This document shows, piece after piece, positions 7,788 to 43,442 of a stretch of 43,749 nt of DNA. The notes beneath the pieces are model-generated. The model did not search any database, had not been told where the DNA came from, and was given only the letters and a program-made list of their open reading frames with translations. A program made the position numbers and the translations under genes. The number at the start of each line of letters is the position of its first letter. Within the stretch, counting starts at the first letter, position 1. Source of the DNA: a virus; IMG/VR virus record IMGVR_UViG_3300040801_004504, positions 1 to 43,749 of that record; one strand, 5' to 3'.

Positions 7788-7854
7788 TGCAAGGTAGCAG
7801 TATGTACCAAGAATAAAGAAAACTAGTTTGCATAGTTTGCATGTTTGCAAACTT
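7788..7854 (+). repeat. regulatory module, right copy
   Basis: TGCAAGGTAG at 7788-7797 and TTTGCAAACTT at 7844-7854 repeat the left copy (5287-5345) in order and orientation. Two more TTTGCAT words lie at 7827-7833 and 7836-7842, giving three near-tandem half-sites spaced 8-9 bp. They overlap the -33 and spacer of the rightward promoter, the expected place for a repressor. Confidence 0.6.
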
Positions 7855-7867
7855 ATGCCTATCTTTG
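7836..7867 (+). promoter_or_regulatory. main rightward early promoter
   Basis: TTTG (7836-7839), a 20-bp spacer and TATCTTTG (7860-7867) match the Bacteroidota sigma-factor consensus exactly. Transcription should start near 7874, leaving a short leader before the ATG at 7913. The TTTGCA half-sites overlap it, implying repression in the lysogen. Confidence 0.72.
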
Positions 7868-7912: not shown

Positions 7913-8506
7913 ATGAGCAAATCACCCAATTCCAACGTAGCCAAGCCTACTAATCCCCCCACCGAGACGGCACCTGCGTCCGCGCCCCAGCAGATGAGCG
8001 ACCAGTCGTCGGCCATCATGGTCGATGCCAGCGGCAAGCCCGTCGTCGAGGTCTCCCAGTTCCTTCAGCTGCTCAACCAGGGTGGCGAGATGGCGGACTT
8101 CGACATCATGGACCTGCCCGACCTGAGCGATGCCCCGGTGGTACCCCTTTCTCTGGTGGAGGACTACTGGAGCCCCGAGAGTAAGGGCGAGGTACGTAAG
8201 CTGGCCTTCCTGGGCGTCAAGACCGTAGAGATTCCGAGCATGTCGGAAGAGAACCGCGGCGAGCTCGTCGAGCGCACCTACGTGGAGTTCGTGGAACGGC
8301 AGGCCGACGGTACCGGCAAGATGGTTACCAGTGCGGCCGCCCGACTGGTGGGATTCTTTACCGATCGCAACGTCCCCCGCGGCACCTTCTGGCAGATCAC
8401 TTACAACGGCAAGGTCCAGAACAAGACCAACGCCTACAAGAGCGACTCGTTCCTGATCAACATGATCGTGGTACCGAGCCGTGCAAAGTCCGCCCAACGT
8501 GGGTAG
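7913..8506 (+). CDS. rightward-operon early protein, unknown
   Basis: A 197-aa protein. A disordered Pro/Ser/Thr-rich N-terminus (1-45) is followed by a compact domain: DYWSPESKGEVRKLAFLGVK, VERTYVEFVERQ, AARLVGFFTDRNVPRGTFWQ and ITYNGKVQNKTNAYKSDSF. The beta-rich pattern and position as first gene suggest a nucleic-acid-binding (OB-like) protein in replication or recombination, but this is by eye only. Confidence 0.65.
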   Translation: MSKSPNSNVAKPTNPPTETAPASAPQQMSDQSSAIMVDASGKPVVEVSQFLQLLNQGGEMADFDIMDLPDLSDAPVVPLSLVEDYWSPESKGEVRKLAFLGVKTVEIPSMSEENRGELVERTYVEFVERQADGTGKMVTSAAARLVGFFTDRNVPRGTFWQITYNGKVQNKTNAYKSDSFLINMIVVPSRAKSAQRG

Positions 8507-9484: not shown

Positions 9485-10240
9485 GTGAGTGTTCCGACCA
9501 TCAAGGAACTATACCGTATGCTGGAGGGTCTGGCCCGCCACCGCCGCTTCATGGAGGTCTACGACGATCTACTAACCATACAGCTATGTTGTCTGGCGAT
9601 GCAAACGGAGGAGGAACTGTACCTCGAAACGATCGCTCGCTATGACCAGCAGGTCGTCAGAGAAGAGTGGCCTGCGGTGATTGGCTATCTATGGCGGTTG
9701 TACCAATATCACCTCGAACGGGGGGATGGTTGGTACGATCCGCTCGGTATGATCTTCGAGGAATATACCAGCCGCCGCGGTGCCTCCCAGATGGGGCAGT
9801 TCTTTACGCCACCCGGCGTATGCGATCTGATGGCGTCGATCGCTGCTACCTCCCATAGCGGGACGTGGGTGAATGACCCCAGCGCCGGCTCGGGCCGCAA
9901 CTTACTGGCTCACATCGGTCTCGACCCGGCCCATCGTCTACAGTGTCGCTACCTCGGTCAGGACCTCGACCGGATGTGCGTGAAGATGACGGCGCTTAAC
10001 CTGGCGATGCACGGAATGAGTGGCTACTCTATTCACTGCAACACCCTCACCCTGGAGGTTTTCGGGGGATGGCGCGTGTATCTGGCCGAAACCGGATTGG
10101 GCGTCCGCAAACTGAGCGTCGAGCAGGCAAGGGCTATGGTAGTTCCTTGCACCCCCGCCACTGATCCTGACACTGCCAATGAGATCGCACCTACCCCCAG
10201 CGGGGAAGCGGCAGCGGAGCTTCAGTTACAGCTATTCTAA
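9485..10240 (+). CDS. N6-adenine methyltransferase-like protein lacking motif IV
   Basis: A 251-aa protein with a GTG start. A helical N-terminus precedes the type I/gamma-class core: GQFFTPPGVCDLM (104-116, motif X-like), NDPSAGSGRNLL (130-141, motif I, SAM binding) and YLGQDLDRMCVKMTALNLAM (156-175, motif II). After VFGGWRVYL the catalytic (N/D)PP(Y/F) motif expected around residues 200-220 is absent and an acidic, Pro-rich tail follows. SAM binding is plausible, catalysis is not. It may be a decoy or accessory for a host or phage methylase, or a degenerate enzyme. Confidence 0.75.
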   Translation: MSVPTIKELYRMLEGLARHRRFMEVYDDLLTIQLCCLAMQTEEELYLETIARYDQQVVREEWPAVIGYLWRLYQYHLERGDGWYDPLGMIFEEYTSRRGASQMGQFFTPPGVCDLMASIAATSHSGTWVNDPSAGSGRNLLAHIGLDPAHRLQCRYLGQDLDRMCVKMTALNLAMHGMSGYSIHCNTLTLEVFGGWRVYLAETGLGVRKLSVEQARAMVVPCTPATDPDTANEIAPTPSGEAAAELQLQLF

Positions 10241-12207: not shown

Positions 12208-12302
12208 CTGCGCCTAATGTGAGTGACGGTGCAGGCCGACGTAGGAGGCTTGACACTGGCACTTTATTGGGCGATGGTCTTCTTCTTTATAATCAAGTAA
12301 AA

Positions 12303-13166
12303 ATGAGTCTTACACCAACCAGACCAGTATGTCGGTACTATGGGGGGAAGTGGAAATTGGCCCATTGGGTAATTGGCCATTTCCCTAGACACCGCGCATA
12401 CGTTGAAGCCTTCGGCGGTGCCGGGTCTGTGCTGATGAAGAAGCGGCAATCTATCGTAGAGGTATACAATGATCTGAGTGATGAAATGGTCAATCTTTTT
12501 CGAGTGCTCAGAAACCGAGAAATGTCTGCGGAGCTTCGCAGATTACTCGACCTGACCCCCTGGTCTCGATCTGAATGGCTGAGCTGCTACGAACCTTCAG
12601 GCGACATCGTAGAGCAAGCCAGGCGAACGGTGGTGCTGTGCGCTCAGGGTCACAACCCATCCAAAGCCCTCAACCGGCGTAGTAACGGATGGCGGTCGTC
12701 TTCCTCTGGCAATCATCGATTACCGCAAGACTTTCAGGCATACACTGCGGCCCTTACCCTCATTACCGATAGGCTGAAGGGAGTGCTCATCGAAAACCGG
12801 CCAGCCGAAAAGGTGTGCCGACAACATGATCGGATTTCAACCTTGCACTACCTAGACCCTCCCTACCCGGGCGCAACGAGATCTACGAACAACGGCAACT
12901 ATTATCAACACGAACTACGCCGGATGGAACAGCACGAAGAGTTGGCGGGGTGGGCTAACGACCTAAGGGGCATGGTCGTAGTCTCTGGCTACGATTGTGA
13001 CGAATACGACCAGTGGTTTGGGGGTAGGGGTTGGAAGCGCGTCGCTACCACTGCTACCACTGGAGCGGCTGGGGGTGGATCTACCGGCAAATCGACTATT
13101 GCTACCGAAGTACTCTGGCTCAACCCTTTGGCTGCATCGATGCAAAAGCAGTTGGGGTTGTTCTGA
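12303..13166 (+). CDS. dam: D12-class (Dam-type) DNA adenine N6-methyltransferase
   Basis: 287 aa from the ATG at 12303, preferred over a GTG at 12219 because the conserved N-terminal motif begins right after it. Motifs: CRYYGGKWKLA (10-20, SAM site/motif X), YVEAFGGAGSVLMKK (33-47, motif I), EVYNDLSDEMVNLFRVLR (53-70) and LHYLDPPYP (181-189, motif IV). It transfers methyl from SAM to adenine N6. No restriction nuclease is nearby, so it is an orphan phage methylase, probably protecting phage DNA or marking replication. Last gene of the rightward operon; it converges on leftward genes at a palindrome. Confidence 0.88.
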   Translation: MSLTPTRPVCRYYGGKWKLAHWVIGHFPRHRAYVEAFGGAGSVLMKKRQSIVEVYNDLSDEMVNLFRVLRNREMSAELRRLLDLTPWSRSEWLSCYEPSGDIVEQARRTVVLCAQGHNPSKALNRRSNGWRSSSSGNHRLPQDFQAYTAALTLITDRLKGVLIENRPAEKVCRQHDRISTLHYLDPPYPGATRSTNNGNYYQHELRRMEQHEELAGWANDLRGMVVVSGYDCDEYDQWFGGRGWKRVATTATTGAAGGGSTGKSTIATEVLWLNPLAASMQKQLGLF

Positions 13167-17725: not shown

Positions 17726-18825
17726 CCCGATGCGTTGGTATTTCCGTAGAACAGTACGCGGAGATCTAGCGACCCGTCGGGACGCTTGCGCCCCATCAAC
17801 TTGACCGGTGCCCATTCGTCTTCGGGTGAGGGAGTTCCCTTCGTCTCATCGTCGTCCGTCACTGGCTCATTTCCTTCTGGTACATTAAGGTATCGTTCCA
17901 GCCGCGGTACTCCGAGGCCACTATCGTCATCCCGCCCCGGCTGGAGTATGTCGGTAGCGTGTTCGGCCAGGAAGCCGGCCAACTTATCCTGACTGTCGAT
18001 GTCCGACCGTAGCGAAAGTATCAGTGCGGCAACACCGGCCACCTGAGGGCATGCCATCGACGTTCCGCTCAGCTTGGCGTACCCACCATTTTTGTGGGTT
18101 GAGTAGATGGCGCCACCCGGGGCGGCAAGGTCAATCTCTCGACCACCGGCCGAGAAACTTGACCGACGGTCTCCCGGTTGGTCGGTGCTGGCTACGGTGA
18201 TGACCGGAGCGTAGTTACCCGGGGGGCCTACGGTGCTGCTGCCCCCGGAAAAGCCGCTGTTACCAGCGGCTACGATGATGAAACAGCCGCGGCCGATGGC
18301 GTAGTCGATGGCAGATTTTAGGTGAGAGGGAGTAGCCTGCCCCGCCGGGCCGCCAAGGCTGAGGGATAGGATGCGGCGCTTACCTTTCAGCCTACCCGCA
18401 TCTTCCAGGTCTGCGACGTAGCGAATCATTTGTGAGATCCACATGTAGGAACCGCCGCCGCTATCGTTGAGCACCTTGCAGGCTACTAGGCCAGCGGCCG
18501 GAGCAATGCCCATCACGCCGACTTCGTTGTCTACCCCCGCGACAATTCCGGCACAGTGCGTACCGTGGCCGTGATGGTCTCGATCGGGGGAGTTGGTCAG
18601 GTTTTTATTGAACTCTTGCAGATTGTTGACGGCAAGGTCAGGATGGTCGGCGAATGTGCCGGCGGTGTCGAGCACGAATACGACCGCATTTTCGCCCCGA
18701 GTGAACTCATGAGCCGCCGCCGCCTGCAGGTAGACGTTCCCCCAGTCAACCACCTGACCGGCAGATAGGGCGATGGGGTCGACGTGGTATTCGGGTAGCT
18801 GAATGTCGTAGCGTGGATCGTTCAT
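17722..18825 (-). CDS. subtilisin-like (S8) serine protease without signal peptide
   Basis: 367 aa from MNDPRYDIQLPEYH; the ATG at 18825 overlaps the amidase stop by 4 nt. The S8 triad is complete: Asp53 (VVFVLDTAG), His87 (HHGHGTHCAG) and Ser256 (LSGTSMACP), with the oxyanion Asn189 (VAAGNSG). An acidic linker and a short 'APVKLMGRKRPDGSLDL' tail follow (about 320-367). No signal peptide or long propeptide is seen, so it should act in the cytoplasm or virion, or leave at lysis. An S49 prohead protease is encoded elsewhere, so its target is unclear. Confidence 0.9.
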   Translation of the reverse strand: MNDPRYDIQLPEYHVDPIALSAGQVVDWGNVYLQAAAAHEFTRGENAVVFVLDTAGTFADHPDLAVNNLQEFNKNLTNSPDRDHHGHGTHCAGIVAGVDNEVGVMGIAPAAGLVACKVLNDSGGGSYMWISQMIRYVADLEDAGRLKGKRRILSLSLGGPAGQATPSHLKSAIDYAIGRGCFIIVAAGNSGFSGGSSTVGPPGNYAPVITVASTDQPGDRRSSFSAGGREIDLAAPGGAIYSTHKNGGYAKLSGTSMACPQVAGVAALILSLRSDIDSQDKLAGFLAEHATDILQPGRDDDSGLGVPRLERYLNVPEGNEPVTDDDETKGTPSPEDEWAPVKLMGRKRPDGSLDLRVLFYGNTNASG

Positions 18826-20276
18826 CGGCGGTAGAAGTGTTTGGCAATCATCCATCCGCAACCGCGGTTGGTGTTCTTAGATGGAGGTAGTGGCTCGGTA
18901 TTAGAATCTTCGTTCTCAATCGGTTCGGGCACCTCAGTAGCTGGATGTTCGGGAACGTCACCTTCCTCATTGGCCACATCCCGGTCGGTCCTGGCCTGTC
19001 GGATCATGTCCAGCAATCGCTCTTTGGGGAAGTAGTGGCCAGGACAGGTCCATCCGGGCCGCAGTTCATTGTGGAAAGTCACCTCACAGTTGCGACCGAG
19101 CAGATCATCATGGCGCAGAACTCCGGCCACGGCTGCTAGCAACGAGTCCTCCGTAGGCGGGTGTTGCTCGAAGTTGCCTAGCAGGCAGTGCCCCACACTA
19201 AGGCCGTTGTAACCTCCACAGTGGTAACTGACCGTTTCGGGACGTTGCGTGAGGCAGGTCTGGCCGGATGGGTCGGTGACTTCGTGGTAGGCAATACCCG
19301 GCCAGTCCTGACCGGTCGGCAGACCATTGGAGGCTACACCCTTGGGAGCACTGTGAAAGGCGGCGATACTACGGACGGTATCGTAGTCGGACCCAGACAT
19401 GTGGAAGACATACTTCACCTTCTCACTGATTTCTACGATCCCGTATCGCTTGGAGGGGTGGCTGGGTAGCTGGTCAATCAAATCGATCGGCCGGGGTAGT
19501 TCACCCCCCGAATACGGCCGTACCATAGCCACAGACATGGCGAGTTGCCCCTCAAATTTGGCGTAGAAACCCGGCGGCGGCGGGTTGTCCCAGTCAATTC
19601 CCGTCGCTTCGTAGTGCGCCAGAAGGGCACGATACTGCTCGTAGGTAATGGGCTCATCCAGCTCCCCCACTTCCGTCCAGGACTGGTAGCGCTTGATCAC
19701 CTTGGTTCGCTCCTTATCCTTGCGTTCAGCACGGCGTCGAGCTTTTCCCTCCTTAGTCGGTTTGAAAATTTTGATCAGGCCCGGCAGGAAGCTGATCACT
19801 TCCCATATTCCCACCAATGCCGCCGGTGTAGTCAGGGTCCGGACCTTTTGGTCGCTGGCGGCATTCTTACCCCATAGAGTGAATACTAGGTGAAAGGCAG
19901 CGGCCTGAAGTAGATAGAGTGCGACCCACACCAACAGCCATACCCAGAAGGGAGCGGCTGGGAAGATGAGGCTTAGCAGTATAACGATGGCCGTACGTAC
20001 GGCGGCGTACTGTACTTCCTGCAGCAGGTGCCATCCGTCCGTGAGGAATACCAGGGCGGTAGTCGACAGCGGGAAACGCTCTTCGAGGGGACGGATGAGC
20101 TTGCCATCTGGTCCGCTACGGTATTTGTTGCGCCAACTTTCGGAAGGTTTCCAGAAATGATCCTTGAGGCCGGCAGTCCACCCCCGTCCATAGTGGAATT
20201 GCAGCTTGTCGGCGGCGCCCTTGGCTGCGTGTGCTATTACCAATAGGACGACGGCGATAGTTATATACAATACCAT
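18822..20276 (-). CDS. membrane-anchored N-acetylmuramoyl-L-alanine amidase (endolysin fusion)
   Basis: 484 aa. Residues 1-170 form a membrane domain: one TM at 1-15, then LSTTALVFLTDGWHLLQEVQ (70-89) and hydrophobic stretches at about 92-136, a pattern seen in stand-alone Bacteroidota phage membrane proteins. A basic linker (175-200) leads to an amidase_2/PGRP domain (about 285-430) with Zn-ligand candidates H292 (FHMSG), H402 (FHNEL) and C411 (TCPGH) and the YHEVTDPSG strand. It cuts the amide between MurNAc and the peptide stem. An acidic Pro-rich tail follows. It lies just after a holin candidate, as a lysis cassette. Confidence 0.82.
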   Translation of the reverse strand: MVLYITIAVVLLVIAHAAKGAADKLQFHYGRGWTAGLKDHFWKPSESWRNKYRSGPDGKLIRPLEERFPLSTTALVFLTDGWHLLQEVQYAAVRTAIVILLSLIFPAAPFWVWLLVWVALYLLQAAAFHLVFTLWGKNAASDQKVRTLTTPAALVGIWEVISFLPGLIKIFKPTKEGKARRRAERKDKERTKVIKRYQSWTEVGELDEPITYEQYRALLAHYEATGIDWDNPPPPGFYAKFEGQLAMSVAMVRPYSGGELPRPIDLIDQLPSHPSKRYGIVEISEKVKYVFHMSGSDYDTVRSIAAFHSAPKGVASNGLPTGQDWPGIAYHEVTDPSGQTCLTQRPETVSYHCGGYNGLSVGHCLLGNFEQHPPTEDSLLAAVAGVLRHDDLLGRNCEVTFHNELRPGWTCPGHYFPKERLLDMIRQARTDRDVANEEGDVPEHPATEVPEPIENEDSNTEPLPPSKNTNRGCGWMIAKHFYRR

Positions 20277-32013: not shown

Positions 32014-32486
32014 GGATCTACTACTTCGTTGTTGCCGGTCTGCTGGAGCTCAATGAACTGGAAGAGTTCCTGCCCGGGGCTGCCCGGATTGGTCTCAAGG
32101 CCGTACGCCTTGACCGTCTGCCCATCGTTCGGACCGTAGGCCGAAGAGTTGGCCGCGATGCCGTAGACTGCGTTACTGGCCGGCTGGCCTTCGGTGTAGG
32201 TGATCATGCGCAGGTAGGTGCGGGCGGGTAGGATGTGATCCGGGTGTAGAAGCTCGATCACCTCCTCCGGGGTAGTCGCATCGAATACCTTACCGTACAG
32301 CAGCTTACCGGCCTCGTAGAGTCCAATGAGGTCGTCGGCCCGGTTAGGTATCACCGAAACCGCCGTACCGGGTGCGCATCGTTCGAGCTGGGTGGCATTG
32401 GTCGGGGCGGCAATCGTGCTCAAGAGCTCGGCCGGCTGATCAATTGAGGCCTGTACTGATTTTACCAAGTTGGTTAGGAAGCCCAT
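32007..32486 (-). CDS. small tail protein after the tape measure
   Basis: 159 aa (MGFLTNLVKSVQASIDQPAE ... TYLRMITYTEGQPASNAVYG). TAATG couples it to the tape-measure stop. The helical N-terminus and beta-rich C-terminus could be a distal-tail or tape-measure-capping protein. No specific family recognised; the assignment is positional. Confidence 0.5.
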   Translation of the reverse strand: MGFLTNLVKSVQASIDQPAELLSTIAAPTNATQLERCAPGTAVSVIPNRADDLIGLYEAGKLLYGKVFDATTPEEVIELLHPDHILPARTYLRMITYTEGQPASNAVYGIAANSSAYGPNDGQTVKAYGLETNPGSPGQELFQFIELQQTGNNEVVDPC

Positions 32487-35400
32487 TACTTACCCGTTCG
32501 TTTGTCGAGTCTTTCCTGACGTTCCCGGCGCCGGTTGGCGTCCGCCGCGCCGTCGGCAACCCCCTTCCTGCCGGCTTCGTAGATCGCCCGGGCGGCGGCG
32601 GCAGCGATCTTGGCCGCAGCCTCGTCGGATAGTTCGGCCTGAGGGGATTCGGATTGCGGACCGAAGACCTGGGCATAGGTACCGTTGTGCTGCGCATTCA
32701 GTAGCGCGATGCCGTCGAGATTGGGGGGTTCGATAATCCCACCCTCGTCGAAGATGGGCCGGCCGAAGCCGCGAAACCGGTTGATGTGATCCAGCGTGAC
32801 ACCCTTACCGCGGAAGCTGCGGCCGTACATGCCATTGAGTTCCTTACGGTGGTTGGCGGCGCTGCGCTTGTTGATGACGATCACGTTGCCGTTCTCGTCG
32901 TAGTCGATGAACTCGCCGTCCTCAGCCAGTACGTTATGGCCGTTCAGCGTCAGCGGTACCCCGCCGCCCGGGCCGTTATGCGACTGCCCGCGTACCCAAC
33001 CCTGCATCACCTTGTAGTTTCGCTCAGCCCTACGTCGACGGCGCGTTCTGGGGCTAACCGGTCGTACGTCTTCGTCTTCGAAGATACCGCCCCGGGCCGC
33101 GATGGTTTGCGATCGGATGGCTTTGACCTGTTTGGCGGTAGACAGCGCCAGGGCCGTGATCTGGGCCGCCTTGAATACGGAAGATAGGGGCTGTGGGATC
33201 AGGCTCTGGGCGGAGAGTATGTTGATGACCCCGGCGGCCGAGGAGGCAAGCAGGGCAGCGATCTGGTACTTCTTGGCGGCTTCGAGTTCCTTCTGTCGGA
33301 CCTCGCGTTCGGCTTCTACCTGCTGTTCGCGTAGCTCTTCCTGGCGATCGGCGTTACCCTCGGCTGCTTCAATCTCGGCAGCGTAGCGAGCCTGGATTTC
33401 GTTGATCTGCTGGTTTGCGCGGGCCGATACGCCTTGCTCAAGGGAGGTAGCAATGTTGCCTATCCGGCCGGTAGCCTCATCGGCAATGGCCAGAATTTTT
33501 TGCAGGGAGTCGGCTCGTCGCTCGGCTTCGTGCAGAGTGTTGCGCGTTACGGTCTCCTCGCGGGACTTCGTGTTCTCGATGATGCGTTCGTTCAGGCGAT
33601 CCTGAAACTCATCCGTCTGACGCTCCAGGGCGGACTGAGTTTGCGAGAGCTGATCAATCTCGGCGTCCGTTTCCGGCAGGATACTGACGGGGGTGATATC
33701 ATCACCCAGCCGGGCGATCTCATTCCTGATCTTCACCCGTGCATCCTGCAACTTCTCGATGGCCTGCTCAACCCCCAGGATGTCTTCGATCAGGGAACGC
33801 TCCTGGTCACTTCCCGACACCGCACCGGTCAGTTCCGTCTGAAGATCGGAGAGCTGCGCCTGCAGGAAGCCGATGCTATCGCGGGCGAACTTCTCGGTGG
33901 CCACCGCGGCGGCTTTGGTGCGGCCCTCGTACTTGGCTATCTCGTCTTTCAGCTCGGCAATACGCTTACCCGTACGGGTGAAGGCGGATGAATTAACGTC
34001 CAGTTTCTCGTAGGACTTTTGTAGTCTGCCCAGTTCGGCCTTCATGGTAGCCAGCGAGCGGATCGACTTCTTCGATTCCTCGTTGTTCTTTTTCTGTGAC
34101 TCAGTGTTTTCGTCTACCTCATCGGCTACCTCTCCGTAGCCGGCACCTGCGCCCCCGCCCCCGAAGTTGGGTGTATCCTCGATAGCCTCACCCAGGCCCA
34201 GTAGGTTGCGGAAGAAAGAGTTGACCGACTTACCGGCACCGTTCACCGTCTCGCTGACACTGTTGAGCCCTTTTTCCAGGGAGGTGAGCCAGCCCACGAC
34301 GGTTTCGACCTCCTTAACCGTATCGCTCAACACGTCGTTCAGGCCACCCACGACGTCAAGGGTCCCTTCCCCTTTGTCGTTGACCAGTCCCATGTCGCGG
34401 GCCAGGTCAACGAACATGCCACCGATGGGGCGCAATGCGTCGAAGAGATCACCGAAGAAGTTAATCACTGGAACTAGGAATCGTAGAAATAGAGCCTGAC
34501 CGCGGGTGACCAGACTATCCATCGTAGAACCCGTCGTGCCGAATGCTTTAGCTACCTCTTCCTGGGCTAGCACAAACTCATCGATAGCTTCCTTTTCTTT
34601 CAGCTTCTGTTGAGCATAATCACTACTTGTATCAATGACTTTCTTTGTAGCCTGGTCAATATCGCCTAAAGACTTAACGAAATCAAGTCCACCGTCTTCG
34701 CCTACCCCACCGTAGACATCTGCTAGAATAGCACCAACCTCCGGGGCGTCGTCACGAAGGGTTTGAACTTGCGTTGAAATTTTAGCAATTGCAGCGCCTA
34801 TGTTCTTTTCAGATACAAGCTTCTCTATATCTTCAGAAGCCAATCCTATACCTTCGATAGCTTCTCTTGTTGCTGGCGTTAGTTCGCGCAATCGGGTACG
34901 TGCTTCGTTGATAACATCAACTGCTCGATCATTAAAGATGCCCTGTTCGTTACCCCTACGAATTACTTCCTGAAAGGCGTTAGCAGCGGCTTCACCCTCC
35001 CCAAAAACTTCCTTGAACGCCGGACCGAATTCCAATAGACTATCCAAGTATTCTCCGTTGGTATCTAAACCGGTAGCTAGACCATTGGTGATTCTGTTGA
35101 AGGCGTCCTCGTATGTTATCCCTGTACTTTCAGAGTAAGCATTGGCAGCCCGTAGAATTTCATTAGCATCACGATCGAACGTTTGGGCGATGGATGAAGC
35201 TTCCCGGGTCAGCGCATCCAGGCGTTCGCCCTCCGTGCCGGTGAGCGCTTCGACCTGAGCCTGGAGGGAACGGTACTCTTCGGTCAGGTCCTTGACGTAC
35301 TTGGTGGTGGCCACCGCGGCGGAACCGGCTGCGGTGATAAAACCGGCGGGAGTGGCTAGGCTGGCAAAGTCGACACCGGCGGCGCCGACGAGAGCCTCAC

Positions 35401-36148
35401 CCACCCCGTCCAGGGCAGAGGCGTAGTTGCCCACATTTCGCTGATATTGGCCCATGTCGGCGTCGAGTTCCTTGAGCTCCTTGTCGAGCTTCGCGATACG
35501 CGTCAGTAGGTCCTGGCCGACAACTTGGCGTTCGGCCTTACCGAGCTCGCGGTACTGCCGGCGCAGGTTGACCAGTTCGGCGTTGAGCGCTCGGTAACTG
35601 CCTTCGGCCTTGCCGCCGGCCACGGCCTGGTCGCGAGCCGTATCGCGGACCTCCTGACGGTACTGACCGAGCTCGGTCTTAAGTTGAGCGATACGGTTGA
35701 GGAGTGGCTTGCCGGCTACTCCGCGTTCTTCCCTGCTAAGGCTTTCATACTCGTCCTGTACAAGACGTAGCTCTGCCTTTAGTCCGCGGATGGATTCAGC
35801 GGTGATGTCGTCGGCCCGTTGCTGGGATTTGCTCCGCTCTTCATTGGCTTTCTCCACCGATTTGGCGGCCTCCCGTTCTTGCCGGGCCCGGTCTTTGGCG
35901 GCTTTGGCGGCTTCCTTGGCGGCCTTCTTGGCAGCCACGGCTTCGGCATTGTACTGGTCTTTCAGGTCGGCCTGCACCTGCTGTAACCGCTTCAGCTGCT
36001 TCTCCTGATCGGACCGTTCAGAACTGCCAAACTCGGCGGACTTGTAGGCCTTCGACACGGCCTTGACGGCGGCGGCCAGTTCCTTTTCGTTGGAAATGGC
36101 GCGCTCGACACCTTCGATGACAACTTTGAACGCAATTACTTTGGCCAT
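32486..36148 (-). CDS. tail tape measure protein
   Basis: 1220 aa from MAKVIAFKVVIEGVERAISN; the ATG at 36148 is preferred over an upstream one because conserved-looking sequence begins there. Long coiled coils fill 20-260 and 780-1010. A hydrophobic/Gly-rich block (LVGAAGVDFASLATPAGFIT) and a TMP-type core (EANEILRAANAYSEST-like, FNDRAVDVINEARTRLRELT) lie between. The C-terminus has GGVPLTLNGHNVLAEDGEFI. It sets tail length and leaves with DNA. The core at about 34560-35160 is visibly AT-richer than both flanks, suggesting a recombined patch. Confidence 0.88.
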   Translation of the reverse strand: MAKVIAFKVVIEGVERAISNEKELAAAVKAVSKAYKSAEFGSSERSDQEKQLKRLQQVQADLKDQYNAEAVAAKKAAKEAAKAAKDRARQEREAAKSVEKANEERSKSQQRADDITAESIRGLKAELRLVQDEYESLSREERGVAGKPLLNRIAQLKTELGQYRQEVRDTARDQAVAGGKAEGSYRALNAELVNLRRQYRELGKAERQVVGQDLLTRIAKLDKELKELDADMGQYQRNVGNYASALDGVGEALVGAAGVDFASLATPAGFITAAGSAAVATTKYVKDLTEEYRSLQAQVEALTGTEGERLDALTREASSIAQTFDRDANEILRAANAYSESTGITYEDAFNRITNGLATGLDTNGEYLDSLLEFGPAFKEVFGEGEAAANAFQEVIRRGNEQGIFNDRAVDVINEARTRLRELTPATREAIEGIGLASEDIEKLVSEKNIGAAIAKISTQVQTLRDDAPEVGAILADVYGGVGEDGGLDFVKSLGDIDQATKKVIDTSSDYAQQKLKEKEAIDEFVLAQEEVAKAFGTTGSTMDSLVTRGQALFLRFLVPVINFFGDLFDALRPIGGMFVDLARDMGLVNDKGEGTLDVVGGLNDVLSDTVKEVETVVGWLTSLEKGLNSVSETVNGAGKSVNSFFRNLLGLGEAIEDTPNFGGGGAGAGYGEVADEVDENTESQKKNNEESKKSIRSLATMKAELGRLQKSYEKLDVNSSAFTRTGKRIAELKDEIAKYEGRTKAAAVATEKFARDSIGFLQAQLSDLQTELTGAVSGSDQERSLIEDILGVEQAIEKLQDARVKIRNEIARLGDDITPVSILPETDAEIDQLSQTQSALERQTDEFQDRLNERIIENTKSREETVTRNTLHEAERRADSLQKILAIADEATGRIGNIATSLEQGVSARANQQINEIQARYAAEIEAAEGNADRQEELREQQVEAEREVRQKELEAAKKYQIAALLASSAAGVINILSAQSLIPQPLSSVFKAAQITALALSTAKQVKAIRSQTIAARGGIFEDEDVRPVSPRTRRRRRAERNYKVMQGWVRGQSHNGPGGGVPLTLNGHNVLAEDGEFIDYDENGNVIVINKRSAANHRKELNGMYGRSFRGKGVTLDHINRFRGFGRPIFDEGGIIEPPNLDGIALLNAQHNGTYAQVFGPQSESPQAELSDEAAAKIAAAAARAIYEAGRKGVADGAADANRRRERQERLDKRTGK

Positions 36149-36419
36149 GGTCGGGCAGCTTTCAATCCACGACACGCACGGATTGCCACAATTAGTTGCA
36201 AGTTAATTATTTTACTACGAATTGTAGACCGCATGAATGATGCACGACAAAGCGTCTGGGTTTGCACGAAAAACCTGCACGGTTTAAAATCAAATCGGAA
36301 CAGATTAGGAACAAAGTGCGTACTGATTGTATACTAAGTGCGACTTAATTTGTTATTTTGTAAGTGACTTTTTTGGTAGAAAGTCAGTAGTTACAGAACA
36401 GTCTAGCAGCGACGACATA
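36149..36419 (+). promoter_or_regulatory. AT-rich divergent control region for the toxin-antitoxin pair and tape measure
   Basis: No gene is supported in these 271 bases. AAGTGCG occurs at 36314-36320 and 36336-36342, 22 bp apart (two helical turns), each starting a small inverted repeat (AGT-GCGT-ACT, 36315-36324; AAGT-GCG-ACTT, 36336-36346). A third AAGT-G-ACTT lies at 36362-36370. TTAATTTG (36345-36352) and TTATTTTG (36353-36360) are near matches to a rightward -7 box. This looks like an autoregulated promoter of the Panacea gene. Confidence 0.5.
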
Positions 36420-36950
36420 ATGGAAGAGGCAATCGCAGTAGCGAATTACTTTATCGACAAGTCGATACACGACCCGGACCCGCGGGCGGCCGTGACCAAC
36501 ATGAAACTGATCAAGTTGGTCTACATCGCTCATGGTTGGTACCTGGCCATGTACGACCGACCGCTCATCAAAGAGAATGCCGAGGCCTGGAAGTACGGGC
36601 CGGTCATTCCGACGGTCTACGAAGAGTTTCGGCACCATGGGGGGGAGTACATTACCGAGAAGGCAAACGGTTCATTCTGGAAGAGCAACAGCCGCTACGA
36701 ACTTACCGAACGTGAGGGTCTGGCGCCGTTCCTGGATAAGGTATGGAACACCTATGGCTACTACACAGGGGGACAGCTGATGAACCTGACCCACCAAGTA
36801 GGTACCCCCTGGGAGATGACCTGGCACCACTACGGCGGTCGGGGCGGGTTCGGTGTCACTATCCTCAATCCGCTCATCCAGAGCCACTATCGGGACAAGC
36901 TGGAAACGAACAAGAAGGCCAATGCAGCAGCCGAACCCGAAGGAGTTTGA
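36420..36950 (+). CDS. Panacea-domain (DUF4065/SocA-like) antitoxin
   Basis: 176 aa from MEEAIAVANYFIDKS; the ATG at 36420 starts exactly at the domain. Signature blocks: VTNMKLIKLVYIAHGWYLAM (25-44), EAWKYGPVIPTVYEEF (55-70) and a later LTHQVGTPWEMTWHHY. Panacea is an established antitoxin domain that neutralises unrelated toxins, including membrane-acting ones, often in prophages. It lies on the opposite strand to the late operon with its own control region, as phage 'moron' genes do. The downstream overlapping two-TM gene is the probable toxin. Which partner is toxic is inference. Confidence 0.85.
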   Translation: MEEAIAVANYFIDKSIHDPDPRAAVTNMKLIKLVYIAHGWYLAMYDRPLIKENAEAWKYGPVIPTVYEEFRHHGGEYITEKANGSFWKSNSRYELTEREGLAPFLDKVWNTYGYYTGGQLMNLTHQVGTPWEMTWHHYGGRGGFGVTILNPLIQSHYRDKLETNKKANAAAEPEGV

Positions 36951-37317
36951 GAATTTAAGTGAACCGGAGGCGCCCTCGAATCAGCCTTCGGAATCAAACA
37001 GTATAGAGGAGAGAGATTATCAAGCGGGACTCCTTGAGAATGCCGACCGGCAAAGTCACCGACGAGATCAGGAGCTTTACAATCTATCCTATAGTGTTGG
37101 TAAGTTCTCTATCGTAGTAGCCTTCGTGGTGTTCCTGCTCATCGCATTGATCCGGGTTCTACACCTACTGTTACCTACCGGTTGGACCTGGATGGAGGGA
37201 GATCAGATTGAGAGCGTCGATTCCCTTCTCAACCTATTCTACGGGGGCGCGATCGGTAGCTTTCTGACTAAGTTCGTCGAGAACCACCTGGCCAAAAAGC
37301 GTAACCGACAGCTTTAG
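36922..37317 (+). CDS. two-TM protein overlapping the Panacea gene, probable toxin
   Basis: 131 aa from MQQPNPKEFENLSEP; the ATG lies inside the antitoxin gene (29-nt overlap). A polar, acidic N-terminus (1-50) leads to TM1 (about 61-84: KFSIVVAFVVFLLIALIRVL, HLLL), a loop with WTWMEGDQ, a second hydrophobic segment (102-118: LLNLFYGGAIGSFLTKF) and a basic tail (HLAKKRNRQL). The basic end suggests both termini are cytoplasmic. Membrane toxins paired with Panacea are established; I do not recognise this one. A superinfection-exclusion protein is the alternative. Confidence 0.62.
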   Translation: MQQPNPKEFENLSEPEAPSNQPSESNSIEERDYQAGLLENADRQSHRRDQELYNLSYSVGKFSIVVAFVVFLLIALIRVLHLLLPTGWTWMEGDQIESVDSLLNLFYGGAIGSFLTKFVENHLAKKRNRQL

Positions 37318-37327
37318 TATCAGGCTA

Positions 37328-37864
37328 TCAAGAGCGAATGGCCTTCTCTAATTCATCGGTCAGGGACCCTTCCAGTAAGACCTCCAGTCGCAGCCGTTTT
37401 TCTATCTCCCGTTCGTTCACCTCCAGTCCTTTCTGAATCCACCCCGTGCGGCGTCCGTTCTGACTAAACGAATAGCTACCACGGGTAGGATGACCTTCCC
37501 GTTTTGCAGTTTGCGCGATGGCGAAGGCTACACCCTTACGCTCCTGATCCGACAGGGAGGGCTTGACCGTACGCAGCCAGCGGATGAGACCCTGTATGTA
37601 CTTCGACTTACCGCTTCCACCGCCGCCGCCATACGGCACCTTACTGGCTTTCACGCCATCGTTTACCGGGTCAACCATGTACTCTTCTGCCAGTATCCAA
37701 CCCTCCAGTCGCTGTAGGTCACGCTTCTCAATGCGCCCTTCCAGTGAGTCCCGGCCCCGGCCGGTGGCCACGTGGCCCTGCTGAGTGATTTCTTCCCTAC
37801 CCTGCTCCACCAGCCAGTCGAGCAACTCACCGAAGCGCTTCTCGATGCGCTGTTCTAACAGCAT
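37328..37864 (-). CDS. HK97 gp10-like tail completion protein candidate
   Basis: 178 aa. A helical start (EQRIEKRFGELLDWLVEQGR) is followed by ITQQGHVATGRGRDSLEG, the 'TGxLRxSI' type motif of HK97-gp10-like neck/tail completion proteins, then a Gly-rich loop (PYGGGGGSGKSKY) and a basic helical C-terminus. It overlaps the upstream gene by 10 nt. The order neck protein before tape measure fits a siphovirus tail module. The Panacea pair has inserted directly after it. Confidence 0.6.
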   Translation of the reverse strand: MLLEQRIEKRFGELLDWLVEQGREEITQQGHVATGRGRDSLEGRIEKRDLQRLEGWILAEEYMVDPVNDGVKASKVPYGGGGGSGKSKYIQGLIRWLRTVKPSLSDQERKGVAFAIAQTAKREGHPTRGSYSFSQNGRRTGWIQKGLEVNEREIEKRLRLEVLLEGSLTDELEKAIRS

Positions 37865-40278: not shown

Positions 40279-41496
40279 TCAAACGAATCCTCTCATCTTC
40301 CCCCTACGGATGACCCTGGGCTTGATCGTTTCCATACAGTAGTAACGGATAGCATCCCAACCATGATTGAACGCATCGATGGGATCATTAGTAAGTTCAC
40401 CCGTGCGCGGACCGCTCTTGATTTTCTTGTAGGTGTACTTCTTGCGCTCCTGGATGATGTCTTCCGAATCCGATGTGACGTGTACGTTCGTCTGGTTGAC
40501 CAGGCTAAGGCCGTACTCAATCGAGCCCGGGCCCTTCTTAACCTCGATGATGCGGTAGCCAAGACGGCGCAGGTGGTCACAGGCCCTGGCGTCGGCACCG
40601 TCGGCGTAAATCGGTACGGTACGTTTGGGTATGCCGAGCTTCACGAAGGCCCGGTCTAGGTCGTCCAGGGACATTCCGCGTCGGTAGAGCAGCTGTCGGG
40701 CGAAAAGGTCTTCCTGCCCGTTCTGTAGCCCACAGTGCACCAAGGCGGTCGGGTCAGCACGGTAGCCGAAGTCCAGCCCGTACCCCTGCCGAGCTAGCTG
40801 ATCCGGCATCCGGTGGACCACTTCCATTCTGGGTATGCAGAGCTCACCTAGCTGACCGGTCTTACCCAGGCCGTACACCTTCCAAAGTTGCTCGTCCTTC
40901 TTCCTGATGTCGCGCAGTTCCATTAACGCACCCTCCGAAACGTAGGGGTTGTGGGTGAAGTTGGAGTAGTACACGATCGTATCGGACCGGCCCATCAGGT
41001 GTTCGTGGGCCCAGAAAGGAGCGGTGGGATTGTAGTCGACGAAGATCTCCTCGGAAGTACGCATGGTGACTTGCCGGAAGACGGAGTAGGGGACGCCGTT
41101 GCCCTCGTTGAAAAAAGCAATGTTACGCTTTCCGTTCTTGGCATCCTGGGCATCGCCGTAGCTCACGAACTCCAGAATGGAACCGTTCTTAAACTCCCAG
41201 CTGAAGGTAGACTTGTTATGCTTCGCGACCTCTGCCTGGATGGCCGGGCTGCTAGGCAGTATGCGGGTTTCGAAGTCACGGTAGCTTCCCTTGCGCAGGT
41301 TGGGCATGTCCTGACCAACTACGGTAGCGATACGCGACTTCTCCAGTAAGCGAAGAACTATGACCTGGAGGATGGAATACGTCTTCCCGCTGGAGGTACC
41401 CCCCTGGTTTATCTTGATCCGGTGCTTACGGTCCGCGTAGTTCCAGTTAAAAACCGGGGTGGCTTCACTGTCGAACAGATCAGGGTGCAATCCCAT
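40279..41496 (-). CDS. terL: terminase large subunit
   Basis: 405 aa from MGLHPDLFDSEATP (ATG at 41496; the in-frame TTG six bases earlier is less likely). ATPase: Walker A GGTSSGKT (32-39), Walker B IAFFNE (126-131) and VDYNPT coupling motif (153-158). RNase H-like nuclease: YGLDFGYRADPTALV (239-253, Asp242), IYADGADARACDHL (296-309, Asp299) and NDPIDAFNHGWDAIRYY (370-386). It is the Terminase_3/PBSX-like type. It cuts concatemeric DNA and pumps it into the prohead through the portal. It overlaps the small subunit by 17 nt. Confidence 0.93.
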   Translation of the reverse strand: MGLHPDLFDSEATPVFNWNYADRKHRIKINQGGTSSGKTYSILQVIVLRLLEKSRIATVVGQDMPNLRKGSYRDFETRILPSSPAIQAEVAKHNKSTFSWEFKNGSILEFVSYGDAQDAKNGKRNIAFFNEGNGVPYSVFRQVTMRTSEEIFVDYNPTAPFWAHEHLMGRSDTIVYYSNFTHNPYVSEGALMELRDIRKKDEQLWKVYGLGKTGQLGELCIPRMEVVHRMPDQLARQGYGLDFGYRADPTALVHCGLQNGQEDLFARQLLYRRGMSLDDLDRAFVKLGIPKRTVPIYADGADARACDHLRRLGYRIIEVKKGPGSIEYGLSLVNQTNVHVTSDSEDIIQERKKYTYKKIKSGPRTGELTNDPIDAFNHGWDAIRYYCMETIKPRVIRRGKMRGFV

Positions 41497-42091
41497 CGTC
41501 AATCTCGTCTTCTGAGGTCACCGGCGGGGTGGCGCTACTGACCTGAACGGTGAAGGTGAGTGGCTGACCACCCGGTGAACTGTGCTCGTGCTGACTTCGG
41601 ATGGGCGCATCGGCGCCGATCATATCCCTGAGCGCCTTGAGGGCGGTCTGTTTATCGTAAAATTCTACCTTGACCCATTCGGTGTAGACCTCCTTACCCT
41701 CCCTATCGTAGCTGTCCCGCTTCGTTTCTACCTTCTTGATACAGGCCTTGACGTGAGCCGGAAGATCCGCGTATTCTTCGCGACTGAACCAGTCGGTCAT
41801 AATGTGGTCGATGCCAGCTTCGACCTGAGCTTTGTAGTGTTGGGCTATCCAGAGTGCACTGATGCCGGCAGCTTCAGCGATGTTGTTCCGGAGATGATCA
41901 AGATAGGCTTTGATCTTACCATTTCTTAGCAGTCGGGAAGCACCCGAGGCAGCCGCAGCATCGGTTTTAACCTTGTAGCCGGCGTCCTTATACGCCCGCG
42001 TACCGTTCCAGTCGATGGCGTATTCCTGAGCGAACCGGCGCTGTAAATCGGTAAGTTTGGAAAAGTCGGTATCAGTAAGTCGGGCAGACAA
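41480..42091 (-). CDS. terS: terminase small subunit (Terminase_2 family)
   Basis: 203 aa. The start is a TTG at 42091, forced because no other start precedes the conserved domain: LTDLQRRFAQEYAIDWNGTR, then AYKDAGYKVKTDAAAASGAS and RLLRNGKIKAYL (about 12-65), the N-terminal DNA-binding domain of Terminase_2. The rest is helical, with ALKALRDMIG near 155-164 and an acidic tail. It recognises the packaging site and hands DNA to TerL. The packaging site is probably nearby. Confidence 0.9.
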   Translation of the reverse strand: MSARLTDTDFSKLTDLQRRFAQEYAIDWNGTRAYKDAGYKVKTDAAAASGASRLLRNGKIKAYLDHLRNNIAEAAGISALWIAQHYKAQVEAGIDHIMTDWFSREEYADLPAHVKACIKKVETKRDSYDREGKEVYTEWVKVEFYDKQTALKALRDMIGADAPIRSQHEHSSPGGQPLTFTVQVSSATPPVTSEDEIDDGIAP

Positions 42092-42140: not shown

Positions 42141-43442
42141 CTACCCAACGTCTCGCTTCCCACCGTAGTATGGTAGGGCCTTCAATCTGGCGGCCCGCTG
42201 CTCGGCGTCTTCCTTGATGTAGTGGAGCAACGTCTTTCTATCGGCATGGCCGGTCATGGCCTGGATGTCGTCGAGATGGATTCCGGCGGCGTGTGCGTTG
42301 GTAGCAAAGCTACGTCGGGCCGTGTGGGTACTGATGAGTTCGTACTTCTTGAACTCTTGGATGACGGACTTGCCGCGGATCTGTCGGACCAACCTGACGG
42401 TTTCGGTCATGCCTGCCATCTGGCAGACCTCCTTTACGTACCGGTTGATAGTTTGAGGCTTCCGATCCGGTAGCTTCCAATCGTATCGTTCTCCTACGGT
42501 TCGCATCATCTCGCTCAGAGGGATGACTACGCGTTTACGGATTCCCTTCTGGGTGAATAGGCTAAGCATTTGGCGGCCGTCCACCTCGATCAGGTTGCCG
42601 GCGTTGATCTGCGGCCACCGATTCACCCGAAGGCCAGTACAGCAGCCGGCCAGAAAGAGGTCACGGCACTCCGTGTGAAGCTGGAAATCGGATAAATCGA
42701 AGTTGGCCAGATGCTCGAGCTCTTCGTCGTAGAGTGCGATGGTATCCATCGCCTGAGAGGATAGCCGGAGGTGGCTTTTGAGCTGCACCGAGTGAATATC
42801 TGCCCCCAGTTTGTGGCCGTGGGCGGCGGCATGGATGCAGACCTGCTTGAACTTGCGTAGCATCTTATGGACGGTGGAGTCACTCCGCTCTTCCGGAAGG
42901 GTCCAGAAGTAGTCGCGGTACTCCTCGAACAGTCCGAGATTGATGTCGGCAAAACGAGTGCGCTGGATACGCTGAGCGTCAAACCGGATGAACCAGTCCC
43001 GGGCAACCCGATCGCTAGCAACCGTTGCTCGTGACAGGTTGGCAGTCCGCTCACGGTCGCGAATGAAGGTTCGGTAGTAGTCCGCTACGGTGGGTTCTTC
43101 CATCCGAACGACGGTCTCTTCGCCGTGAATACGGTGACGCAACATCTTCTTCAGTAGATCCGGAGTGAGTTCACTGATGCGATGATCACGACGGTACTCG
43201 TTGTAGGTTCGGCGTACGAACTGGTCGAGGTCGTCCAGAATGCGGTTTACCTCCAGGTAGTCCGGTCGTCGGCGGCACCACTTATCCAGTACGCGTTGAG
43301 CTTTCTTATCCCAGTGGTCCGGGCTGACATGCTCGGACGTAGAGACATGAATGCGCTGACGGCGGTATGCGAAGCGAAGGAGGATCATCGCTTCCCGATC
43401 CGTCTTGGGCTTCTCAAGGTAGTAGCGGACCTTGTGGGACAT
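42141..43442 (-). CDS. int: tyrosine recombinase integrase
   Basis: 433 aa. An N-terminal arm-binding domain (ILLRFAYRRQRIHVSTSEHV, about 20-39) and SAM-like core-binding domain (about 118-215) precede the catalytic domain with Arg272 (CTGLRVNRW), Lys299 (FTQKGIRKRV), HTAR 373-376 (STHTARRSFATN), His399 (MTGHADRKT) and the nucleophile Tyr408 (LLHYIK). The layout is that of Bacteroidota phage/conjugative integrases. It joins attP to the 3' end of tRNA-Arg. It lies 178 nt from the right attachment copy. Confidence 0.95.
   Translation of the reverse strand: MSHKVRYYLEKPKTDREAMILLRFAYRRQRIHVSTSEHVSPDHWDKKAQRVLDKWCRRRPDYLEVNRILDDLDQFVRRTYNEYRRDHRISELTPDLLKKMLRHRIHGEETVVRMEEPTVADYYRTFIRDRERTANLSRATVASDRVARDWFIRFDAQRIQRTRFADINLGLFEEYRDYFWTLPEERSDSTVHKMLRKFKQVCIHAAAHGHKLGADIHSVQLKSHLRLSSQAMDTIALYDEELEHLANFDLSDFQLHTECRDLFLAGCCTGLRVNRWPQINAGNLIEVDGRQMLSLFTQKGIRKRVVIPLSEMMRTVGERYDWKLPDRKPQTINRYVKEVCQMAGMTETVRLVRQIRGKSVIQEFKKYELISTHTARRSFATNAHAAGIHLDDIQAMTGHADRKTLLHYIKEDAEQRAARLKALPYYGGKRDVG

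What the first reader, a model, noticed from the sequence alone, without database searches (positions are those of the whole stretch)
36149..37317. Panacea antitoxin with an overlapping, unrecognised two-TM partner inside the late operon
A full Panacea domain (TNMKLIKLVYIAHGWYLA; EAWKYGPVIPTVY) is followed, with a 29-nt overlap, by a 131-aa protein with two hydrophobic segments and a basic tail. The pair is on the opposite strand between a tail completion gene and the tape measure, with its own AT-rich control region. Panacea proteins neutralise many unrelated toxins (established). The pair therefore probably is a prophage toxin-antitoxin or anti-phage module with a possibly new membrane toxin. 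Antitoxin-first order with toxin start inside it implies coupled translation.
Basis: partly seen in the sequence, partly recalled or inferred. Interest (0 to 1): 0.82.

Follow-up and report, generated by a model that had tools for sequence, protein, structure and literature searches.

The report
Known-type phage Panacea toxin–antitoxin pair
This is a two-gene toxin–antitoxin module carried as cargo in a phage genome: a Panacea antitoxin and a small membrane protein that is a distant relative of a laboratory-tested toxin that makes holes in the bacterial membrane, so it is real but ordinary.

Summary
Window 36420-36950 (+) encodes a 176-aa Panacea protein (PF13274, E 4e-21), and 36922-37317 (+) encodes a 131-aa membrane protein overlapping it by 29 nt, beside the minus-strand tape-measure gene. 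The toxin–antitoxin reading is well supported; "possibly new membrane toxin" is not. The second protein has no hit above a cut-off in four family libraries, yet it belongs to a family of small membrane proteins encoded beside Panacea genes in phages and in several bacterial phyla: 63 bits against a profile that excludes it, best local shuffle 25. That family includes the neighbour of the only Panacea gene found in Bartonella choladocola BBC0122, the pair published as membrane-depolarising and pore-forming (PMC8832971) and as PanT-D11 (PMC10440598). Sequence-to-profile match: 99.1 %, E 2e-18. The two antitoxin residues needed for neutralisation there are conserved. In 1144 sampled genomes, 8 of 9 strong homologues outside the three centre genomes lie beside a Panacea gene. 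A bolder idea, one docking motif shared by unrelated Panacea-linked toxins, fell to a reversed-sequence control.

The parts
36149..36419 (.). AT-rich divergent intergenic region between the tape-measure gene (-) and panA (+); likely holds the panAT promoter
   Evidence: GC 0.41, 0.36 at 36200-36399; two + and one - strand sigma-70-like matches lie here, three found against 0.9 expected over 35900-37600. No exact Bacteroidota-type TANNTTTG match here. Promoter not shown.
36420..36950 (+). panA: stand-alone Panacea (SocA/DUF4065) antitoxin, 176 aa
   Evidence: PF13274 E 4.2e-21; 36 % identical over 165 aligned positions to the single Panacea protein found in B. choladocola BBC0122; Y59 and H125 match its Y56 and H120.
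36922..37317 (+). panT: 131-aa membrane protein of the PanT-D11 (Bartonella) toxin family: disordered N-terminus, charged helix, strong TM1, HLLLP..W.W loop, weak Gly-rich second helix, basic tail
   Evidence: Profile match without itself 63.2 bits; 99.1 % / E 1.8e-18 to a 37-row family profile; model with helices 24-83 and 93-130, mean pLDDT 81.
36922..36950 (+). 29-nt panA/panT overlap
   Evidence: ORF coordinates; 30 of 44 family pairs overlap by the script's start choice.

Best explanation
It is a phage-borne type II PanAT toxin-antitoxin pair. PanT, once free, inserts its long helix and hairpin in the inner membrane, depolarises it and probably forms pores, which stops growth. PanA, made first from the same transcript, binds the N-terminal, cytoplasmic part of PanT and holds it inactive. 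In the phage it sits as an independently expressed cargo gene pair (a moron) on the strand opposite to the late genes, where it most likely stabilises the prophage or aborts infection by other phages. Shown here: domain identity, family membership, gene order and overlap, conserved co-occurrence and conserved antitoxin residues. Inferred by homology: toxicity, pore formation, neutralisation by direct binding. Guessed: own promoter and the benefit to the phage.
For: PF13274 match. A profile built from 17 phage Panacea partners, not including P0002, gives P0002 63.2 bits, full shuffles at most 4.3, locally shuffled copies at most 25.2. The Panacea partner in B. choladocola BBC0122 scores 100.5 bits against that same profile, also without being in it; one Panacea match was found in that genome, so this should be the validated pair, and the published residues Y56 and H120 fall exactly on Y and H in it. 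BLASTP P0002 to that PanT: 27 % over 51 aa, E 2e-8 for the one comparison. hhalign of sub-clades 98.8 %, E 7e-17; single P0002 to a 37-row family profile 99.1 %, E 1.8e-18 over 114 columns, against 0.3-45.9 % for the three other partner types. Unsupervised clustering of the membrane modules of 113 partners puts P0002 and the Bartonella toxin in one group of 47. Co-occurrence: 8 of 9 strong matches outside the centre genomes adjoin a Panacea gene. PMC8832971 (passages, outline, section 5 part 1 of 2 and section 10) reports depolarisation with SYTOX-permeable pores for the Bartonella toxin and antitoxin-first order in 943 against 325 loci; PMC10440598 (section 10 and passages) reports that Panacea is predicted to contact the N-terminal region and the short helix before the membrane segment, and that Y56A and H120E abolish neutralisation.
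Against: No toxicity or neutralisation test for this pair. Identity to the validated toxin is low. One strong homologue (L193) has no Panacea match within about 4 kb on either side, so the pairing is not absolute. My in-silico complex (PanA read through into PanT) gave no rise in confidence for the toxin's N-terminus (residues about 14-43: blocks of 51-74, against 59-91 for the toxin alone, which had a deeper alignment), so direct binding is not supported by it; no coordinates were available. The N-terminal motif of the family is not significant in P0002 itself (p 0.46).
Confidence: 0.85

Rival explanations
1. The pair is primarily an anti-phage or superinfection-exclusion module: Panacea senses an invading phage and releases the membrane protein, which aborts the infection. 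(A more specific biological role of the same pair, not a different identity.)
For: Cargo position in a phage on the strand opposite to late genes; PMC10440598 proposes Panacea as a sensor and shows anti-phage activity for another membrane toxin system, RosmerTA of phage Kita.
Against: No PADLOC hit for either protein. In the parts I read, PMC10440598 reports anti-phage activity for RosmerTA and neutralisation data, not phage protection, for D11.
Confidence: 0.35
2. The membrane protein is a lysis accessory (holin or antiholin-like) of the phage and the Panacea protein regulates it.
For: Small membrane protein within the late region; helix hairpin model.
Against: It is on the opposite strand to the late genes; the endolysin and amidase matches lie far away at 18822-20276; the family occurs beside Panacea genes in bacterial genomes and close to integrase genes in two other phages; membership is in a toxin family.
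Confidence: 0.04
3. The partner is an unrelated or spurious ORF that merely overlaps the Panacea gene.
For: No hit above a cut-off in Pfam or NCBIfam, none below E 0.1 in PHROGs, none in PADLOC; no match in viral contigs, phages or plasmids with P0002 alone.
Against: Profile searches, a conserved start and overlap, and conserved neighbourhood.
Confidence: 0.01

Closest known systems
PanA-PanT of Bartonella choladocola (formerly B. apis) BBC0122: cluster T12 in PMC8832971, node D11 in PMC10440598
   Same: Stand-alone Panacea antitoxin first, membrane toxin second; 131-aa toxin with acidic N-terminal part, strong TM1, H..xP..W.WL loop and weak Gly-rich second helix; antitoxin Y56 and H120 conserved.
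   Different: Toxin 27 % identical over 51 aa; genes overlap by 29 nt here, 4-nt gap in Bartonella; phage-borne here.
PanA-PanT of E. coli STEC O31 (cluster T3)
   Same: Same antitoxin domain; two-TM membrane toxin with charged N-terminus. The locus in phage PhiR47_1 is identical to an E. coli locus whose PanA has the published accession WP_000287252.1; the toxin accession there, WP_000019187.1, differs in its last digit from the published one.
   Different: Different membrane module: second segment strong (type 0 median 2.09 against 1.17); P0002 against this type 10.5 %, E 0.003 over 26 columns.
SocAB (NF047745; SocB is cluster T10 in PMC8832971)
   Same: Antitoxin domain family.
   Different: Below the SocA equivalog cut-off (116 of 190 bits); SocB is, from recall, a cytosolic replication inhibitor of Caulobacter.
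RosmerTA (Gordonia phage Kita), PMC10440598
   Same: Phage-encoded membrane-depolarising toxin.
   Different: Different antitoxin domain (D25) and toxin (D5) (passages).

Membership tests
PanAT toxin-antitoxin system | Antitoxin with a Panacea (PF13274/DUF4065) domain | tested here: met
   76.4 bits, cut-off 25.7
PanAT toxin-antitoxin system | Two-gene locus, genes at most 100 nt apart | tested here: met
   29-nt overlap
PanAT toxin-antitoxin system | Pair conserved in more than one species | tested here: met
   29 of the 80 Panacea loci kept from GTDB genomes carry a partner of this family; 8 of 9 strong matches outside the centre genomes adjoin a Panacea gene
PanAT toxin-antitoxin system | Toxin inhibits growth and antitoxin rescues by direct binding | not testable with these tools
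   Needs a bench assay
PanT-D11/T12 membrane toxin family | Sequence homology to the validated B. choladocola toxin | tested here: met
   That L139 holds the validated protein is inferred from the strain name, one Panacea match in the genome and matching Y56/H120 numbering; the accession itself was not seen.
PanT-D11/T12 membrane toxin family | Charged N-terminus followed by membrane helices | tested here: met
   Net charge -6 before TM1, TM1 62-80, second segment weak; helices 24-83 and 93-130
PanT-D11/T12 membrane toxin family | Antitoxin residues Y56 and H120 needed for neutralisation | tested here: met
   Y59 and H125 of P0001
PanT-D11/T12 membrane toxin family | N-terminal AxxE(A/E)xx-hydrophobic motif seen in this family here | tested here: inconclusive
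   Leave-one-out significant in 20 of 38; P0002 p 0.46
PanT-Esc. col. (T3) family | Sequence homology of the membrane module | tested here: not met
   P0002: 10.5 %, E 0.003 over 26 columns; sub-clade profile 4.5 %
SocA equivalog (NF047745) | Score above 190 bits | tested here: not met
   116.2 bits

The most novel reading that the evidence does not exclude
The pair lies antisense inside the phage's own late region, so late transcription running from the gene at 37328-37864 on into the tape-measure gene would have to cross panAT and make antisense RNA to both genes. Late-phase induction, or a related superinfecting phage, could thereby shut off PanA supply and free PanT, turning the toxin into a timed membrane-collapse switch. 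I saw no convincing terminator that would stop such transcription (two weak minus-strand matches, as many as chance gives); equally, the tape-measure gene may have its own promoter in 36149-36419.
Probability: 0.07. Interest if true: 0.55.

Novelty: new member of a known kind. Interest (0 to 1): 0.27.

Why it matters
It adds a divergent phage member, probably of a Bacteroidota phage, to the PanT-D11 family and shows that the four libraries searched miss it. The family profile built here finds members beside Panacea genes in phages and in genomes titled Bacteroidota, Pseudomonadota, Planctomycetota, Acidobacteria, Chloroflexi and others, so such pairs can be annotated as membrane toxin–antitoxin modules rather than 'hypothetical'. 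Whether T12 and T3 are homologous, which PMC8832971 left open, stays open: full profiles share only a 16-column match (56.7 %, E 1e-4).

Tried and rejected
Single-sequence searches with P0002 in viral contigs, phages and plasmids found nothing; only a profile route worked. A viral scan with a five-row profile found one contig already held. The published Bartonella toxin as a single query also found nothing in phages.

Shared docking motif across unrelated Panacea-linked toxins: a first motif search found a type-1-specific basic pre-TM helix that did not transfer; a second did not transfer (z at most 1.9); a motif read off the family alignment (AxxE(A/E)xx-hydrophobic; P0002, redundant rows and three rows whose column was evidently not the motif were left out of training, 28 windows used) seemed to transfer to type 0 (z 4.1, 0 of 1000 shuffles), but reversed type-0 sequences scored alike (z 3.7). 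Rejected across types. Within the family it survives leave-one-out in 20 of 38 (31 of 38 without leaving out).

Complex modelling: only an intramolecular read-through was possible; inconclusive. A first 50-row alignment for it was misaligned and not used. Foldseek against viral models: P0002 alone no useful match (best E 5); the read-through model matched mostly unnamed viral proteins of about 110-190 aa (best E 2e-5), by their length probably through its Panacea half, which I did not check. No solved structure for P0001 at E 0.1; the PanT profile gives only weak matches at E 0.0085 and above, chiefly cytochrome oxidase subunit 4, taken as chance.

Empty-site comparison: no close relative of the phage was found. 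In L175 and L176 the homologue of the 37328 gene is followed by another same-strand ORF, with no panAT match. Six loci from genomes of the order of Sabulibacter with 35-40 % terminase identity lack panAT in the 12.5-13.2 kb that start with the terminase, but only one of them has a recognisable tape-measure match, so this is weak. Literature: one search found two papers for PanAT plus toxin-antitoxin; the listings showed none about this locus; supplements were not read.

Rows dropped: 21 of 80 viral Panacea loci were left out of the partner survey as near-copies of the E. coli locus; of the 59 used, 6 gave no partner; of 80 genome loci, 6 gave none. In the order search 8 matches with E 3e-5 to 8.5e-4 (L184-L191), none beside Panacea, were set aside as chance: seven are in frames of 466-1873 aa, one is broken. 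Two Panacea stops had been misplaced in my first overlap count (31 of 44); corrected to 30 of 44.

Full report
WHAT IS THERE. The window is a virus record of 43,749 bases with an integrase match at 42141-43442, terminase subunits at 40279-42091, endolysin and amidase matches at 18822-20276 and a tape-measure protein at 32486-36175, all on the minus strand. On the plus strand, between the tape-measure gene and an ORF without a convincing family hit (37328-37864), lie two overlapping genes: 36420-36950 (176 aa) and 36922-37317 (131 aa). The first is a Panacea protein (PF13274, 76.4 bits, E 4.2e-21). The second has no hit above a cut-off in Pfam or NCBIfam, nothing below E 0.1 in PHROGs and nothing in PADLOC.

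THE PARTNER IS A KNOWN KIND OF MEMBRANE TOXIN. Panacea relatives in phages and plasmids (121 phage and 35 plasmid records) led, in the seven loci opened, to neighbouring genes of 114-300 aa with hydrophobic segments. I then collected Panacea loci from viral contigs (80 loci kept, of which I surveyed 59) and from one-per-species genomes (80 loci kept of at least 548). Downstream partners: 44 distinct in viral contigs and 74 in genomes. A profile of 17 phage partners that excludes the window protein gives it 63.2 bits; full shuffles reach 4.3 (867 of 1000 scored) and 1000 locally shuffled copies reach 25.2. Clustering the membrane modules of 113 partners without supervision gives four groups (48, 47, 8 and 6 members) and four singletons; the window protein is in the group of 47. 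29 of the 80 genome loci carry a partner that scores 40 bits or more against the profile.

One of the 29 is Bartonella choladocola BBC0122 (L139), whose partner scores 100.5 bits against the same profile without having been in it. One Panacea match was found in that genome, so the pair should be the one that Kurata et al. 2022 (PMC8832971; passages, outline, section 5 part 1 of 2 and section 10 read) tested: its toxin depolarised the membrane and let SYTOX Green in. Ernits et al. 2023 (PMC10440598; section 10 and passages read) call it PanT-D11, model Panacea on the toxin's N-terminal region and pre-membrane helix, and show that Y56A and H120E in the antitoxin abolish neutralisation. In L139 residues 56 and 120 are indeed Y and H, and they align with Y59 and H125 of the window antitoxin. 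The window toxin matches the Bartonella toxin directly (27 % over 51 aa, E 2e-8 for the one comparison), by sub-clade profiles (98.8 %, E 7e-17) and as a single sequence against a 37-row family profile (99.1 %, E 1.8e-18 over 114 columns); the three other partner types give 0.3-45.9 % over 11-26 columns. One of those types is the E. coli T3 toxin: the PhiR47_1 locus is identical to an E. coli locus whose antitoxin has the published accession WP_000287252.1; the toxin accession there differs by its last digit from the published one.

IS THE PARTNER TIED TO PANACEA? I searched 1144 genomes (390, 385 and 369 around three genomes that hold the family) with a 36-row profile. At E 1e-6 there are 12 matches; leaving out the three centres, 9 in 8 genomes, of which 8 lie beside a Panacea gene (L178, L180, L181, L182, L183, L195, L196, L197; the last two from one genome) and 1 does not (L193; no Panacea match within about 4 kb). 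Eight weaker matches in the first search, none beside Panacea, look like chance.

ANATOMY AND MECHANISM. The toxin model (mean pLDDT 81) has a disordered N-terminus, a helix 24-83 that runs through TM1, and a helix 93-130. TM1 is strong (2.97); the second segment is weak and glycine-rich (1.15), as in the family (median 1.17) and in the Bartonella toxin (1.17), unlike the E. coli type (median 2.09). A 29-nt overlap is ordinary: 30 of 44 family pairs overlap, three of them by exactly 29 nt, by the script's start choice, and the nearest Bacteroidota relatives start alike. From the homology the toxin should depolarise the membrane and the antitoxin should hold its N-terminal part. A read-through model of antitoxin plus toxin did not raise confidence in the toxin's N-terminus, so it neither supports nor excludes binding.

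CONTEXT. The nearest Panacea proteins found are in Sabulibacter and Rufibacter (44-48 %), so a Bacteroidota host is likely but not shown. Two other phages carry pairs of this family close to integrase genes, and one carries a Panacea pair of another type close to CI/Cro genes, which fits a mobile cargo pair. Two viral contigs with a relative of the flanking 37328 gene and six loci with a related terminase lack it in the stretch examined, a weak sign of insertion.

WHAT FAILED. I suspected a common N-terminal docking motif across unrelated Panacea partners. It is present within this family (leave-one-out 20 of 38; not significant in the window protein) but its transfer to another type vanished under a reversed-sequence control.

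VERDICT. Interest is modest.

Noticed in passing
   Followed up: partly
L139, L161, L023 and other family members, residues about 20-40: Conserved AxxE(A/E)xx-hydrophobic motif in the disordered N-terminus of the toxin family; a candidate antitoxin-binding site.
   Followed up: partly
L075, L085, L073: Partners whose N-terminal part repeats a segment like EIQAFENNEDQ before the membrane part.
   Followed up: no
L002 (Salinibacter ruber plasmid pSR56), 2479-3381: A 300-aa Panacea partner with four hydrophobic segments, as if two toxin modules were fused.
   Followed up: no
window 9485-10240 and 12219-13166 (+): Two genes with phage DNA-methyltransferase matches.
   Followed up: no
window 7848-7867: Neighbouring TANNTTTG motifs, one per strand, before the gene at 7913; 20 such motifs in the window against 11.5 expected, hinting at Bacteroidota-type promoters (motif recalled).
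   Followed up: no
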